A program made the translations under genes and the position numbers. Under the pieces are notes generated by a model. The model ran no database searches, had not been told where the DNA came from, and saw only the letters and a program-made list of their open reading frames with translations. From Solirubrobacteraceae bacterium (GTDB taxonomy: Bacteria; Actinomycetota; Thermoleophilia; Solirubrobacterales; Solirubrobacteraceae): a stretch of DNA of 37,830 bases. Numbering within the stretch: the stretch's first letter is position 1; each line of letters begins with the position of its first letter. Shown in pieces: positions 25,983-31,709 of this stretch. The stretch is from assembly GCA_030690545.1 (NCBI GenBank), contig JAUYGN010000076.1:1-37830 (forward strand), in the 5' to 3' direction.

Positions 25983-26072
25983 CACCGCCGCCGTGGCGAC
26001 GGCGAGGAGGGCCATTACGACGTGGCCGACCGCGCAGGAGCGGCGAGCCGCCGTGAGCGGATCCCGTGGCGT

Positions 26073-26111
26073 GTGTCGAACGACTCGTGGCATGCGCGAA
26101 CGATTCGACAC
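26073..26111. promoter_or_regulatory. candidate operator upstream of hisC
   Basis: Outer arms GTGTCGAA (26073-26080) and TTCGACAC (26104-26111) form a dyad. Inside them CGAACGAYTCG occurs twice as a direct repeat (26077-26087, 26097-26107), 20 bp apart, about two helix turns. It lies 33 bp upstream of the hisC ATG, in the divergent leuS-hisC gap. Not a LexA box (no GAAC-N4-GTTC). The binding protein is unknown. Confidence 0.45.
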
Positions 26112-26131
26112 GCCCCAGCACGGCGATAGGC

Positions 26132-26137
26132 GACAAT
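26132..26137 (+). promoter_or_regulatory. -10 box of hisC
   Basis: GACAAT, 6 nt before the ATG at 26144; leaderless initiation is likely because no ribosome-binding site is present. Confidence 0.35.
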
Positions 26138-26143
26138 CTCCCG

Positions 26144-27223
26144 ATGGCGATCGAGTTCTCCGCGCGCGTGCGGCGCATGCCCGTCTATCCCGTCGCCGAC
26201 GGCTACTCGCTGCCCGACGACGTCGCGATGCTCGCCTCCAACGAGTCGCCCGACCCGCCGCTGCCGGCGGTCGTCGCCGCGGCGCAGCGAGCGCTGAGCG
26301 GGGTCAACCGCTATCCGGACCCCTCGAACGCGACGCTGAAGCGGGCGCTGAGCAACCGCTACGGCATCGCGCCGAGCCGGATCGCGATCGGCAACGGCTC
26401 CTGCGACGTCCTGCTGGCCGCCGGCGAGGCGCTGCTCGAGCCCGGCGCCGAGCTCGTCTACGCGTGGCCGTCGTTCAGCGTCTACCCGTACCTCGCGGCG
26501 GCCTCAGGCGCGCGCGCGATCACCGTGCCGCTGGACGACGACGACTACCACGACCTCGACGCGATGGCCGCCGAGATCACGGCCGCGACGCGCCTGGTGA
26601 TCGTCTGCAACCCGAACAACCCGACCTCGACGGCGCTGCCGTTCGCCGACATCGCCGCGTTCGCGCAGCGCGTCCCGCGCCACGTCGCGCTGATCGTCGA
26701 CGAGGCCTACTGCGAGTTCAACCTGCTCGACGACCCCGACACGACGCTCGACCTGCTCGACCGCCATCCGAACCTCGTGCTGCTGCGAACGTTCTCGAAG
26801 GTCTACGGCCTCTGCGGGCTGCGCGTCGGCTTCGCGCTGTGCGGCAGCGAGGACTTCGTGCGGGCCGTCGACGCCGTGCGCCAGCCGTTCTTCTGCAACG
26901 CCGCCGCCCAGGCCGCGGCGGTCGAGGCGCTCGCCCACCAGGACGCCGTCGCCGAGCGCGTCGAGCGCGCGATCGTCGCGCGCGTCGAGATCGCGTCCGG
27001 CCTGAGCGAGCTCGGCATCGAAGCGGCGCCCTCGCAGGCGAACTTCTGCTGGTTCGACCTGCCCGAGGAGAGCGACGAGCAGGCCGTCGTCAGGGGACTC
27101 GCCGAGCGCGGCGTGCTCGTGCGCGCCGGCACGGCGCTGGGGCGGGCAGGGGCGCTGCGTGTGACGTATGGCACACCTGGCCAGAACGTCCGTTTCCTCG
27201 ACGCGCTGCGCGAAGTCCTCTAA
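26144..27223 (+). CDS. hisC: histidinol-phosphate / aromatic aminotransferase
   Basis: 359 aa class I/II PLP aminotransferase of the HisC family: ASNESPDPPLP at the N-terminus, CNPNNPTST, DEAYCEFN, and the PLP lysine K219 in RTFSKVYGLCGLRVGF. HisC homologues next to shikimate-pathway genes often transaminate phenylpyruvate or hydroxyphenylpyruvate. Here the gene is followed by two DAHP synthases and tyrA, so an aromatic role, or a dual one, is plausible; no other his gene is nearby. The ATG at 26144 begins MAIEFSARVRRMPVYP; the upstream in-frame codons fall within the putative operator. Confidence 0.88.
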   Translation: MAIEFSARVRRMPVYPVADGYSLPDDVAMLASNESPDPPLPAVVAAAQRALSGVNRYPDPSNATLKRALSNRYGIAPSRIAIGNGSCDVLLAAGEALLEPGAELVYAWPSFSVYPYLAAASGARAITVPLDDDDYHDLDAMAAEITAATRLVIVCNPNNPTSTALPFADIAAFAQRVPRHVALIVDEAYCEFNLLDDPDTTLDLLDRHPNLVLLRTFSKVYGLCGLRVGFALCGSEDFVRAVDAVRQPFFCNAAAQAAAVEALAHQDAVAERVERAIVARVEIASGLSELGIEAAPSQANFCWFDLPEESDEQAVVRGLAERGVLVRAGTALGRAGALRVTYGTPGQNVRFLDALREVL

Positions 27224-27226
27224 GCT
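27198..27226 (+). promoter_or_regulatory. promoter of the aromatic leader transcript
   Basis: TCGACG (27198-27203), 17-nt spacer, TAAGCT (27221-27226). The -10 box contains the TAA stop codon of hisC. Eight nucleotides separate it from the ATG of the leader peptide. Confidence 0.5.
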
Positions 27227-27234
27227 CTCGCTCG

Positions 27235-27309
27235 ATGATCCGGTCCACCGACAGCGCCCGCAGCACGTTTGCCTTCGCGCGTCGGTATTTCGCCTGGCGA
27301 TTTACCTAG
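27235..27309 (+). CDS. aromatic-rich leader peptide of the DAHP synthase operon
   Basis: 24-aa peptide, MIRSTDSARS followed by TFAFARRYFAWRFT. Residues 12-23 hold four Phe, one Tyr and one Trp, six aromatics in twelve positions, directly upstream of the first enzyme of aromatic amino acid synthesis. Two Phe codons are TTT and the Tyr is TAT, codons rarely used by the neighbours. The predicted transcription start is at the ATG, so this is the first thing translated. Its stop codon TAG begins a long hairpin (27309-27357). This is the layout of a Phe/Tyr/Trp-sensing attenuator; the mechanism is inference. Confidence 0.72.
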   Translation: MIRSTDSARSTFAFARRYFAWRFT

Positions 27310-27357
27310 GCGCTCGGCTCACCGCACCCCTCTCTTTCCGCCCTTTCGCCGAGCGCC
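27309..27357 (+). promoter_or_regulatory. attenuator-type hairpin after the aromatic leader
   Basis: Perfect 10-bp stem GGCGCTCGGC (27309-27318) with GCCGAGCGCC (27348-27357). The 29-nt loop is pyrimidine-rich and includes CCTTTC (27342-27347), complementary to GAAAGG (27390-27395), the ribosome-binding site of the next gene. No T-run follows, so control of translation is more likely than classical termination. A ribosome at the leader stop codon would cover the 5' arm. Confidence 0.55.
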
Positions 27358-27408
27358 CGCAGCACCGCCAGCCAGGCGTTCAATCTTTCGAAAGGACCGT
27401 AGACCGAG

Positions 27409-28236
27409 ATGACCGAGATGAGAAGCAAGGCGCGAGCAGGCGAGCACAGCGTGCTGACGATCGGCGATGCGAAGCTCGGCGGCGAGCACTTCGCGCTGAT
27501 CGCGGGCCCCTGCACCGTCGAGTCGCGCGACCAGACGCTGGCGACGGCGCAGGTCGTCAAGGACGCCGGCGCGACGCTGCTGCGCGGCGGCGCCTACAAG
27601 CCGCGAACGAGCCCGTACGCCTTCCACGGCCTCGGTGAGGCAGGCCTGCGGATCCTCGCCGAGGCCAAGGCCGCCACCGGCCTGCCCGTCGTCACCGAGT
27701 TGATGGACGTGCGCGACCTCGGCGCGATCCTCGAGGTCGCGGACGTGATCCAGATCGGCGCGCGCAACATGCAGAACTACAGCCTGCTGACCGAGGTCGG
27801 CCGCACGCGCCGCCCGGTGATGATCAAGCGCGGGCTGTCGAGCACGATCGACGAGCTGCTGATGGCCGCCGAGTACGTCCTCAAGGAGGGCAACGAGCGG
27901 GTGATCCTCTGCGAGCGCGGGATCCGCACCTTCGAGACCGCCTACCGGTTCACGCTCGACCTCGCCGCCGTCGCGGTCCTCAAGCGGCTCACCCACCTGC
28001 CCGTGGTCGTCGACCCGAGCCACGCGGCCGGGCGGCGCGAGCTCGTCGAGCCGCTCGCGCTGGCGGCGGCCGCGGCCGGCGCCGACGGCGTCATGGTCGA
28101 GGTCCACCCGGCGCCCGACGAGGCGATCTGCGACGGCCCGCAGGCGCTCGCCTGCGAGGACCTCGCCGCGCTCGCCGCCAGGCTCGAGCAGGTCGTCGCG
28201 ATCACCGGCAAGCGGATCGCCACCGCGGTCGTCTGA
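27409..28236 (+). CDS. aroF: DAHP synthase, type I-beta
   Basis: 275 aa. Condenses phosphoenolpyruvate and erythrose-4-phosphate, first step of the shikimate pathway. Type I-beta/KDO8P-synthase-like motifs: [59 protein letters not shown] and [12 protein letters not shown] with the metal-binding residues. It lacks the N-terminal ferredoxin-like regulatory domain of Thermotoga-type enzymes, so direct feedback by that route is not expected. AAAGGA lies 12 nt before ATG 27409; a second ATG at 27418 is possible. It follows the aromatic leader peptide and is 2 bp from the second DAHP synthase. Confidence 0.93.
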
Positions 28237-28238
28237 GG

Positions 28239-29321
28239 ATGGCTCCCACGCGCGCAGAGCAGCTCGCCGGCATCCGCGACACGCGGATCGCGTCGGTCTC
28301 GCCGCTGACGACCCCGGCCGCCCTGCTCGATCGCCTGCCGCTCGAGGCCGAGCTGGCCGACGTCGTGCTGCGCGGCCGCGCCGTCGTGACGGCGATCCTC
28401 GACGGGACCGACGACCGGCTGCTCGTCGTCGTCGGGCCGTGCAGCGTGCACGACCCCGAGGCCGCGCTGGAGTACGCCCGCCTGCTGGCCGAGCAGGCCC
28501 AGCGCCACGAGGACGACCTCTGCGTCGCGATGCGCGTCTACTTCGAGAAGCCGCGCACGACGACCGGCTGGAAGGGGCTGATCAACGATCCCCATCTCGA
28601 CGGGTCGGGCGACGTCGACACCGGCGTGCGGACGGCGCGCGAGCTGCTGCTCGAGGTGCTGCGACTCGGCCTGCCGGTCGGCTGCGAGTTCCTCGACCCG
28701 ATCACGCCGCAGTACATCTCCGACGCGGTCTCGTGGGCGGCGATCGGCGCGCGCACGACGGAGAGCCAGATCCACCGCCAGCTCGGCTCGGGCCTGTCGA
28801 TGCCGGTCGGCTTCAAGAACCGCACCGACGGCAACGTCCAGGTCGCCGTCGACGCCGTCCGCGCGGCGGCCGCCAGGCACTCCTTCGCCGGCGTCGACCA
28901 CAGCGGCACGCCGGCGATCCTGCACACGACCGGCAACCCCGACGGGCACGTGATCCTGCGCGGCGGCTCGGGCGAGCCCAACCACGGTGCGGCCGGCGTC
29001 GGCGCAGCGCTCGGCAAGCTGCGCAAGGCGGGGCTCGCCGAGCGGCTCGTGATCGACGCCTCGCACGACAACAGTGCCAAGAACCACGAGCTTCAGCCCG
29101 CCGTGGCCGCGCAGATCGGCGCGCAGGTCGCGCGCGGCACGGGCGCGATCGTCGGCGTCATGCTCGAGTCCTTCCTCGTCGCCGGCCGCCAGGACGTCGC
29201 GGACGGCGCTTCGCTGACGTATGGGCAGTCGATCACGGACGCGTGCATGGACTGGGACGCGACCGTCGGCGTGCTCGGCGGGCTCGCCGCGGCGGTGCGC
29301 GCCCGGCGCAGCGTGTCGTGA
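28239..29321 (+). CDS. aroG: DAHP synthase, type I-alpha
   Basis: 360 aa, E. coli AroF/G/H class. Same reaction as the preceding enzyme but a different subclass. Motifs: [86 protein letters not shown] and [11 protein letters not shown]. The N-terminal extension (about 1-60) present in feedback-sensitive family members is retained, so Phe, Tyr or Trp inhibition is possible; specificity cannot be read. Its ATG is separated by two bases from the type I-beta stop. Having both subclasses side by side is unusual. Confidence 0.93.
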
Positions 29322-29352: not shown

Positions 29353-30408
29353 ATGAGGGTCGCGCTCGTCGGCGTCGGTCTGATCGGCGGCTCGATCGGC
29401 CTGGCCGCCCGCGGGCGGCTCGGCGCGCATGTCGTCGGATGCAACCGCAGCCCGCGGGCGCTGGAGATCGCGCTGCAGCGCGGCGCGATCGACGAGGCGG
29501 TCGGCAGCATCGCCGAGATCGGGACCGCCGACGTCGCGATCGCGGGCGTCGCGATCGATGCGCTGCCGGCGACGGTGCGGGCGCTGTGCGAGGCGCTGCC
29601 CGACGCCGTCGTGACCGACGTCGGGTCGACGAAGGCGGCGCTCGTCGGCGGGATCGAGCGGGCGAACTTCATCGGCGGCCATCCGCTGGCCGGGGCCGAG
29701 GCGACCGGCGTCGCGCACGCACGGGAGGACCTGTTCGAGGGCGCGACCTGGTACCTGACGCCGCGCGACGCGACGCCCGGCGTGCTCTACGAGCGCCTGG
29801 CGCGGTTCGTCGCCGGGCTCGGCGCGGTGCCGACGGCAATCGCGCCCGACGATCACGACCGCCTGATGGCGGTCGTCTCGCACCTGCCGCACGTCGTCGC
29901 CAACCTGCTCGTCGCGCAGGCCGCCGAGGCGCTCGGCGGCGAGACGCTGCCCGCGACCGGTCCGAGCTTTCGCGACGCGACGCGCGTCGCCGGTTCGAAC
30001 CCGGAGCTGTGGGCGCAGATCTACACCGCCAACCACGCCGCGCTCGGGGCCCAGATCGACGATCTCGTGCGGCGGCTGGGGGAGGTGCGCGGGCTGCTCG
30101 ACGCCCGCATCGCCAACGATCTCGCGGCCTGGCAGGACGTTGCCGCGCAGCAGCGCCGCGCACTGCTCGAGGTCGGGCTGGGAGCGGCGGGCGTCGACGT
30201 GCGGGAGGTCCGCGCCGTCGTGCCCAACAAGCCGGGCGTCGTCGCGCAGATCGCGCTCGCGCTCGGGCGTGCCGGGATCAACATCTCCGACATGTCGCTC
30301 GCGCCCGAGGCCGACAACCGCACCGGCATGATCGCGTTGTGGCTGAGCGCCGCCGACGCCGAGCGGGCGACCGGGCTGATCGCCGAGCTCGGCTACCCGG
30401 CGTCATGA
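29353..30408 (+). CDS. tyrA: prephenate dehydrogenase with ACT domain
   Basis: 351 aa. Oxidatively decarboxylates prephenate (or arogenate) on the way to tyrosine. NAD motif [10 protein letters not shown] at 7-16; the catalytic His lies in [13 protein letters not shown], and [11 protein letters not shown] holds another conserved His. The C-terminal 70-80 residues form an ACT domain ([20 protein letters not shown]), which in related enzymes binds the inhibiting amino acid. ATG 29353 starts right at the Rossmann strand. Its TGA overlaps the aroA ATG. A T-arm-like CCGGTTCGAACCCGG within it is coincidental coding sequence. Confidence 0.93.
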
Positions 30409-31709
30409 CGACCGCGTTCTTCGCACCCTCGCAAGCGCTGCGCGGCGAGGTCGTCGCACCGCCCGACAAATCGATCTCGCACCGCGCCGCGCTGCTCGGC
30501 GCGATGTCGACCGGGACCGTGCGGATCTCCAACTTCCTGCGCGCGGCCGACACGCTGTCGACGCTCGATGCGCTGCGCGCGATCGGCGCGCGAGTCGACG
30601 ACCACGGGGACGGCACGGTCGTCGTGCGCGGCTGCGGGCTGCGTGCGGCGCGCGAGCCGGGCGGTCCGATCGACGTCGGCAACGCCGGCACGCTGATGCG
30701 GCTGCTGCCGGGCTGGCTCGCCTCCCAGGAGGGACGCATCTTCGTGCTCGACGGCGACAGCTCGATCCGCCGCCGGCCGGTCGACCGGATCGCCGAGCCG
30801 CTGCGGCGGATGGGCGCCGACATCAGGACGACCGATGGCCGCTTCCCGCCGTTCGTCGTCTACGGCACGCCGCTTGCGGCGATCACCTACGAGCTGCCGG
30901 TCGCCAGCGCGCAGGTGAAGTCCTGCGTCCTGCTCGCCGGGCTCGGCGCCGAGGGCACGACGCGCGTCGTCGAGCCGGTGCCCAGTCGCGATCACACCGA
31001 GCGGATGCTGGCCGGGGCCGGCGTCGCGGTCGTGCGCGACGGACGCACCGTCTCGGTGCCCAGCAGCGCGGAGCTGGCAGCGCAGGACGTCGTCGTGCCC
31101 GGCGACCTGTCGTCGGCCGCGTTCATGATCGCCGCCGCCGTGCTTGTGCCCGGCTCGCGCATCGTCGTGCGCGACGTGGGGGTGAACTGGACGCGCACCG
31201 GCTTCCTGCGGATCCTCGCGCGGATGGGCGCGGTCGTCGGGGGCGAGCTGGAGGAGCCGTCGGCGGCGGTCGCCGCGAGCGAGCCGATCTGCGATCTCGA
31301 GGTCGGCGCCGGGCCATTGACCGGGACCGTCGTCGAGGCAGACGAGGTGCCGCTGGCGATCGACGAGCTGCCGCTCGTCGCGCTGCTGGGCTGCCTCGCC
31401 GAGGGCGAGACCGTCGTCCGCGGCGCGCAGGAGCTGCGCGTCAAGGAGTCCGACCGGATCGCCGGCGTCGTCGACGGGCTGCGCGATCTCGGCGCGACGA
31501 TCGAGGCGACCGACGACGGCTTCGTCGTCACCGGCACCGGCGGTCGCGGCCTGCGCGGCGGATCGATCGACGCCCGCGGCGATCACCGGATGGCGATGCT
31601 CGGCGCGATCGCGGGGCTGGCGTCGGCGGACGGCGTGCGGGTCGCCGGGATGGACGCCGCGGCCGTCTCCTATCCCTCGTTCGCGGAGGACCTGGCGCGG
31701 CTGGCGTAG
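30405..31709 (+). CDS. aroA: 5-enolpyruvylshikimate-3-phosphate synthase
   Basis: 434 aa, normal length. Sixth step of the shikimate pathway. Motifs: PPDKSISHRAAL (K22), GNAGTLMRLLPG (PEP site), SSIRRRPVDRI, SAQVKSCVLLAGL, and C-terminal ELRVKESDRI and GDHRMAMLGAIAG. It keeps Gly in NAGT, the position where some glyphosate-tolerant enzymes carry Ala, while the SAQVKS block resembles class II/Bacillus forms; sensitivity cannot be predicted. Start overlaps the tyrA stop (ATGA). Last gene of the aromatic operon; a 69-bp gap with no clear hairpin follows. Confidence 0.96.
   Translation: MTTAFFAPSQALRGEVVAPPDKSISHRAALLGAMSTGTVRISNFLRAADTLSTLDALRAIGARVDDHGDGTVVVRGCGLRAAREPGGPIDVGNAGTLMRLLPGWLASQEGRIFVLDGDSSIRRRPVDRIAEPLRRMGADIRTTDGRFPPFVVYGTPLAAITYELPVASAQVKSCVLLAGLGAEGTTRVVEPVPSRDHTERMLAGAGVAVVRDGRTVSVPSSAELAAQDVVVPGDLSSAAFMIAAAVLVPGSRIVVRDVGVNWTRTGFLRILARMGAVVGGELEEPSAAVAASEPICDLEVGAGPLTGTVVEADEVPLAIDELPLVALLGCLAEGETVVRGAQELRVKESDRIAGVVDGLRDLGATIEATDDGFVVTGTGGRGLRGGSIDARGDHRMAMLGAIAGLASADGVRVAGMDAAAVSYPSFAEDLARLA

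What the first reader, a model, noticed from the sequence alone, without database searches (positions are those of the whole stretch)
27235..27309. Aromatic-rich leader peptide upstream of tandem DAHP synthases
Seen: a 24-codon ORF with six aromatic residues (4 Phe, 1 Tyr, 1 Trp) in twelve positions, a promoter at its ATG, and a perfect 10-bp hairpin starting at its stop codon, all in the 185-bp gap before aroF. Known: pheA and trp operons of proteobacteria use such leaders. Inference: one leader here reads all three aromatic amino acids to control the shikimate entry step, on a leaderless mRNA, in an actinobacterial lineage where I know of no such description.
Basis: partly seen in the sequence, partly recalled or inferred. 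Interest (0 to 1): 0.87.

Follow-up and report, generated by a model that had tools for sequence, protein, structure and literature searches.

The report
Aromatic amino acid leader-peptide switch
A tiny gene rich in phenylalanine, tyrosine and tryptophan codons sits in front of the first enzymes of aromatic amino acid synthesis and very probably lets the ribosome switch them on when these amino acids run short; the same element is conserved across a whole order of soil bacteria and resembles a switch known from Corynebacterium.

Summary
The 24-codon ORF (27235-27309), the 10-bp hairpin starting at its stop codon and the tandem DAHP synthases are real, and the ORF is not chance. The same leader lies between hisC and a DAHP synthase throughout Solirubrobacterales: 104 distinct loci, plus 105 records in an independent scan that overlaps them. 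Of 67 non-redundant leaders, 66 encode F, Y and W; aromatics are in-frame only (2.81 per 11 codons against 0.10 and 0.54 in the other frames). The hairpin covaries. A -10-like hexamer precedes most start codons by 7-10 nt, fitting a near-leaderless mRNA. A 15-nt core, CGAUUUANYUAGGCG, spanning the last codons, stop codon and first hairpin arm, is almost invariant.

The likeliest explanation is ribosome-mediated attenuation, a lineage-specific variant of a known kind: Corynebacterium glutamicum aroR (Phe-Tyr-Phe leader) controls aroF, and Corynebacterium-like and Mycobacteriaceae-like DAHP synthase leaders share W-R-F (TGGCGNTTT) followed by a matching hairpin. The Solirubrobacterales version lacks the intrinsic terminator that many relatives carry (2 of 103) and also precedes AroF of another subfamily. 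Whether the read-out is translational or Rho-dependent is unresolved; the SD-sequestering switch predicted for the window is not supported across its genus.

The parts
26066..27223 (+). hisC (histidinol-phosphate aminotransferase; exact start uncertain), the constant upstream neighbour of the leader
   Evidence: TIGR01141 283.7 bits; hisC lies upstream of every in-order element whose flank was long enough to check
27221..27226 (+). -10-like hexamer TAAGCT overlapping the hisC stop codon
   Evidence: sequence; -10-like hexamers at the same place in 47 of 67 relatives
27235..27309 (+). leader peptide ORF MIRSTDSARSTFAFARRYFAWRFT*
   Evidence: conserved in frame across Solirubrobacterales
27295..27312 (+). 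near-invariant core TGG CGA TTT ACC TAG GCG (W-R-F-x-stop plus first hairpin bases)
   Evidence: 15-nt part found with at most 1 mismatch in all 80 loci located with up to 2 mismatches allowed; invariant columns in alignment A1; whole-genome searches
27309..27318 (+). hairpin P1, 5' arm GGCGCTCGGC (starts on the last base of the stop codon)
   Evidence: covariation: 6 of 11 pairs with changes on both sides, 37 cells
27348..27357 (+). hairpin P1, 3' arm GCCGAGCGCC
27291..27298 (+). long-range helix P0, 5' strand CGCCUGGC (overlaps the Ala and Trp codons of the leader)
   Evidence: minimum-energy fold of the window; comparable leader/pre-SD complementarity in part of the relatives
27371..27378 (+). 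long-range helix P0, 3' strand GCCAGGCG, just upstream of the aroF Shine-Dalgarno
27342..27357 (+). 5' side of a possible alternative SD-sequestering stem (CCUUUCG plus GAGCGCC)
   Evidence: predicted fold with a ribosome at the leader stop codon; switch not reproduced by folding in most same-genus relatives
27375..27395 (+). 3' side of that stem (GGCGUUC plus CGAAAGG, covering the SD)
27391..27396 (+). Shine-Dalgarno AAAGGA of aroF
   Evidence: sequence
27409..28236 (+). aroF, DAHP synthase of the TIGR01361 subfamily, without the N-terminal ferredoxin-like domain of its relatives
28239..29321 (+). second DAHP synthase, TIGR00034 (aroFGH) subfamily
29353..30408 (+). prephenate dehydrogenase (tyrA), next gene in the same direction
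30408..31709 (+). aroA, 3-phosphoshikimate 1-carboxyvinyltransferase, next gene in the same direction

Best explanation
This is a ribosome-mediated attenuator of the shikimate entry step. A short mRNA starts at or within a few bases of the leader ATG, and a ribosome translates the leader. If Phe, Tyr or Trp is scarce it stalls on the cluster of aromatic codons before the stop, leaving hairpin P1 free to form; P1 keeps downstream RNA out of a repressive fold and the DAHP synthase genes are expressed. If all three are plentiful the ribosome reaches the stop codon, whose last base is the first base of P1, covers the 5' arm, and the repressive fold forms. Shown: leader, frame, aromatic enrichment, P1 covariation, genomic position, resemblance to actinobacterial aroR-type leaders, lack of an intrinsic terminator. 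Inferred: sensing by stalling, the direction of control, and that in this lineage the off state acts on translation initiation of aroF (about 50%) rather than through Rho.
For: Conserved in-frame aromatic leader between hisC and DAHP synthase over the order. All three aromatic residues in 66 of 67 leaders, rising in density toward the stop. P1 covariation. Near-leaderless promoter spacing. One site only in the genome, and in-order matches sit before a DAHP synthase. Aromatic leaders with the same general anatomy before TIGR00034-type DAHP synthases in other actinobacterial families, many with intrinsic terminators. In the window, predicted SD accessibility is 0.66 for stalls up to W21 and 0.18-0.24 beyond (1 of 150 shuffles as large). 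Independent precedent: aroR/aroF in C. glutamicum.
Against: No transcript, ribosome-profiling or expression data. No intrinsic terminator. The stall-versus-stop change in SD accessibility is not general: over 101 loci 0.495 versus 0.465, p = 0.12, and four of the five same-genus relatives show none (L094 weakly positive, 13 of 150 shuffles as large). Complementarity of P1 loop and 3' arm to the SD is weak overall (mean z -0.26 +/- 0.12). Near-invariance of the core down to synonymous positions is not explained by plain attenuation.
Confidence: 0.82

Rival explanations
1. The leader acts mainly as an arrest peptide: the nascent chain ending W-R-F-x-stop pauses the ribosome at termination in response to an aromatic amino acid or metabolite, as TnaC does, rather than through codon starvation.
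For: R-F is invariant and W is 63 of 67 at fixed distance from the stop. W-R-F also recurs in Corynebacterium-like and Mycobacteriaceae-like leaders.
Against: Synonymous positions are fixed too (CGA, TTT, TAG), which points to RNA rather than peptide. Many aromatic codons upstream vary in position, as expected for codon sensing. One group has W-F without R and two loci have W-R-R-F.
Confidence: 0.1
2. The near-invariant core is a protein- or ligand-binding RNA site (riboswitch-like), and the ORF only overlaps it.
For: 15 nt almost without variation, including bases not paired in P1. No Rfam match, so not a described one.
Against: The strong in-frame aromatic enrichment upstream of the core needs translation. 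Other families keep only TGGCGNTTT and the hairpin.
Confidence: 0.06
3. Same sensing, but the read-out is Rho-dependent transcription termination in the untranslated stretch after the leader stop. This is a sub-case of the best explanation, not exclusive of it.
For: No U-tract terminator and a pyrimidine-rich P1 loop in the window (27320-27347).
Against: No systematic test of rut-like composition was made; the loop composition differs in other genera.
Confidence: 0.3
4. The ORF is a by-product of a conserved DNA or RNA element with no coding role.
For: The core is conserved at nucleotide level.
Against: Aromatic codons upstream of the core change in sequence and position but stay in frame; the other frames are poor in them.
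Confidence: 0.02

Closest known systems
aroR leader of aroF in Corynebacterium glutamicum (Neshat 2014; PMC4046766; PMC11802643)
   Same: Leader peptide with aromatic codons before a DAHP synthase. Corynebacterium-like genomes read here (L355, L356) have MRNWRFYF / MRMWRFYF with TGGCGATTT and a hairpin GGCTCCGG/CCGGAGCC before a homologue of the window's second DAHP synthase, so the W-R-F core is shared.
   Different: In the window the leader stops right after W-R-F-x, the stop codon's last base is the first base of the hairpin, Phe, Tyr and Trp codons are all clustered before the stop, a TIGR01361 aroF stands between leader and the TIGR00034 gene, and no intrinsic terminator was found. C. glutamicum itself was not read here.
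trpL / pheL attenuators of enterobacteria and actinobacterial trpL
   Same: Short leader with regulatory codons followed by a hairpin that can compete with other folds.
   Different: Three amino acids in one leader, DAHP synthase target, no terminator with U-tract here.
LEU element before leuA in Actinobacteria (PMC1262725)
   Same: Leader codons that can pair at or close to the Shine-Dalgarno of the controlled gene, no obvious terminator.
   Different: Leucine codons and a proposed pseudoknot. The conserved core found here was not compared with LEU element sequences.
Polycysteine leaderless ORFs of mycobacteria (Canestrari 2020, PMC8764745; known here only through its citation in PMC13236596)
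   Same: Leaderless short ORF controlling its operon, cited as translational attenuation.
   Different: Cysteine codons; no relation in sequence was tested.

Membership tests
aroR-type DAHP synthase leader (Actinobacteria) | Short ORF with clustered aromatic codons directly upstream of a DAHP synthase | tested here: met
aroR-type DAHP synthase leader (Actinobacteria) | W-R-F core followed by a hairpin, as in the Corynebacterium-like loci | tested here: met
   pattern TGGCGNTTTANCNAGGC in 296 genomes hit 6 in-order genomes and 2 others, both others at a DAHP synthase leader; alignment A2; covariance model E 0.019 on L203
aroR-type DAHP synthase leader (Actinobacteria) | Near-leaderless transcript | tested here: inconclusive
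   -10-like hexamer spacing only; no 5'-end data
aroR-type DAHP synthase leader (Actinobacteria) | Expression rises under aromatic amino acid limitation | not testable with these tools
   needs experiment
Classical transcription attenuator with intrinsic terminator | Leader ORF followed by a conserved hairpin that a terminating ribosome would cover | tested here: met
   P1
Classical transcription attenuator with intrinsic terminator | GC-rich hairpin with U-tract before the structural gene | tested here: not met
   window 0; 2 of 103 Solirubrobacterales loci
T-box or other described RNA family | Match to a curated Rfam model | tested here: not met
   only matches far below the gathering scores
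LEU element | Leader codons pairing with the downstream Shine-Dalgarno region | tested here: inconclusive
   P0 in the window fold; leader/SD duplex mean z -0.49 +/- 0.13 over 93 loci

The most novel reading that the evidence does not exclude
The near-invariant 15-nt core that contains the penultimate Phe codon, the stop codon and the first bases of the hairpin is itself a functional signal of an undescribed type (a stop-codon-embedded RNA switch, or a combined RNA and nascent-peptide signal) that integrates Phe, Tyr and Trp supply without any terminator.
Probability: 0.25. Interest if true: 0.72.

Novelty: new variant of a known kind. Interest (0 to 1): 0.55.

Why it matters
It gives an order of little-studied soil bacteria a testable control point for the shikimate pathway, ties it to a described actinobacterial case (aroR), and suggests that one leader senses three amino acids in front of two DAHP synthase subfamilies. 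The near-invariant core is a concrete, unexplained target for mutational tests. The papers searched here did not describe the Solirubrobacterales element; a search of one open-access library cannot establish that no description exists.

Tried and rejected
Rfam search of the gap: nothing above threshold. The first passes on loci L002-L030 missed minus-strand hits because loci are not reoriented; corrected. Thermodynamic test of SD access in stalled, stop and free states over 101 loci: stalled versus stop not significant, so a general SD-sequestor was dropped; some start codons in that test were assigned wrongly, which adds noise. Duplex test of P1 interior against SD: weak. Stall scan in six same-genus loci: strong in the window, weak in L094, absent in the other four. 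Intrinsic terminator: rejected. Exact-core matches outside the order, apart from G416, lie beside neither hisC nor a DAHP synthase and were treated as chance. TIGR01361 loci of other families in the same class showed no comparable conserved leader except G416. Canestrari 2020 could not be read.

Full report
What was checked. The 24-codon ORF 27235-27309 reads MIRSTDSARSTFAFARRYFAWRFT*. The hairpin GGCGCTCGGC/GCCGAGCGCC (27309-27318 and 27348-27357) begins on the last base of the TAG stop codon. Upstream is hisC; downstream are two DAHP synthases of different subfamilies (TIGR01361, then TIGR00034), followed by tyrA and aroA.

Conservation. DAHP synthase loci were collected from 201 genomes and their upstream DNA fetched. 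After correcting strand orientation, 80 loci carry CGATTTANCTAGGCG with at most one mismatch although two were allowed, as the end of an open frame that mostly reads ...WRF[STI]*. Searches of whole genomes found the exact core in 132 of 399 genomes of the class and 23 of 396 of the phylum draw, with few control hits. Of the loci read around these hits, every in-order one has a DAHP synthase downstream and hisC upstream, except one whose contig was too short to show hisC; the out-of-order hits, apart from G416, lie beside neither. A separate scan of GTDB contigs with a 23-base pattern gave 105 records (80 listed), titled as Solirubrobacterales, Thermoleophilia or unclassified Actinomycetota, including Solirubrobacter soli, S. 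deserti, S. taibaiensis, S. phytolaccae and Conexibacter arvalis, one apparently mislabelled; all 105 encode a frame ending WRF[STI]*, though the pattern itself largely fixes those last letters. Many of these are the same genomes as in the first set, so the two counts are not additive.

Coding signal. In 67 non-redundant leaders the eleven codons before the W contain 2.81 aromatic codons in frame, 0.10 and 0.54 in the other frames and 0.73 +/- 0.095 after shuffling; density rises toward the stop; 66 of 67 contain F, Y and W, counting the fixed F and W of the core. Phe occurs upstream of the core in 35 of 67. A -10-like hexamer (mostly TACAAA/TACAAC) lies 4-13 nt before an in-frame ATG or GTG in 47 of 67, against 7.8 +/- 2.4 with shuffled upstream sequence. 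The hexamer list was chosen after looking at the sequences, so this comparison is somewhat favourable.

Structure. On an alignment of 50 selected sequences P1 has 11 pairs, 6 of them with changes on both sides and 37 double-change cells; at most 2 of 500 shuffles reach the observed value on any measure, and values fall when the partner is slid. The 3' arm had been located by complementarity to the 5' arm, so the percentage paired is partly circular; the U-A/C-G alternation at columns 23-88 is the stronger evidence. The core CGAUUU and UAGGCG are invariant in that alignment, whose members were chosen through that core; the search with two mismatches allowed is the fairer test. TTT occurs 0 of 23 times among Phe codons of the neighbouring genes.

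Read-out. No intrinsic terminator is present in the window and only 2 of 103 Solirubrobacterales loci have one, while it is found in many loci of other families (names such as Mycobacteriaceae-like and Rubrobacter-like are my inference from genome size and protein similarity). In the window the minimum-energy fold joins the leader's CGCCUGGC to GCCAGGCG before the SD, enclosing P1, and a ribosome at the stop codon lets CCUUUCG/GAGCGCC pair with GGCGUUC/CGAAAGG over the SD, dropping SD accessibility from about 0.66 to about 0.2. This is attractive but not general: of five same-genus relatives only L094 shows a weak trend, and 101 loci show no significant stall-versus-stop difference. Leader to pre-SD complementarity is better than swapped partners in part of the loci (own mean 17.5 versus 15.9, 57 of 97 higher) and leader/SD duplexes are modestly stronger than shuffled. 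I therefore rate the sensing part as likely and the read-out as open.

Relation to known systems. C. glutamicum aroR, a leader with Phe-Tyr-Phe before aroF, was predicted in PMC4046766 and reported by Neshat 2014, which I know only through PMC11802643; a 2005 survey found no Phe/Tyr elements in Actinobacteria (PMC1262725). Here, TIGR00034-type DAHP synthases of other actinobacterial families carry aromatic leaders with -10 hexamers close to the start. Two loci that look like Corynebacterium (protein start similar to the C. glutamicum aroF primer in PMC7356990) encode MRNWRFYFEWGSGR and MRMWRFYFSKAPEAETS with TGGCGATTT and a hairpin. The relaxed pattern TGGCGNTTTANCNAGGC in 296 genomes hit only in-order loci and two Mycobacteriaceae-like genomes, both at the DAHP synthase leader. 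The Phe codon after W or W-R was TTT in 30 of 30 matches in such leaders. I infer common descent, but convergence on W-R-F cannot be excluded from so short a sequence.

Verdict. A real, order-wide attenuator leader of the aroR kind with lineage-specific anatomy: new variant of a known kind. What remains strange is the near-invariant core across the stop codon.

Noticed in passing
27409-28236: The window's AroF lacks the N-terminal ferredoxin-like domain (PF18152) that relatives' AroF proteins carry, so it may be free of that feedback control.
   Followed up: partly
L093-L097 (G001-G004, G006): In same-genus genomes the leader lies directly before the TIGR00034-type DAHP synthase with no aroF in between; the window's aroF may have been inserted between leader and an older target, or lost in the others.
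   Followed up: partly
L325-L354, L195-L204, L184-L192: Aromatic-rich leaders with -10 hexamers close to the start, some with U-tract terminators, before DAHP synthases in several other actinobacterial families (YWRFIEAPGG, YFWFSRPAPGG, WYAYF, FYYRF).
   Followed up: partly
L283 (CAMCUD010000075.1): A record titled Bifidobacterium breve carries the Solirubrobacterales leader and is probably a mislabelled metagenome bin.
   Followed up: no
L153 / L104 (G416): One genome placed outside the order by the handle table carries the full element between hisC and aroF.
   Followed up: no
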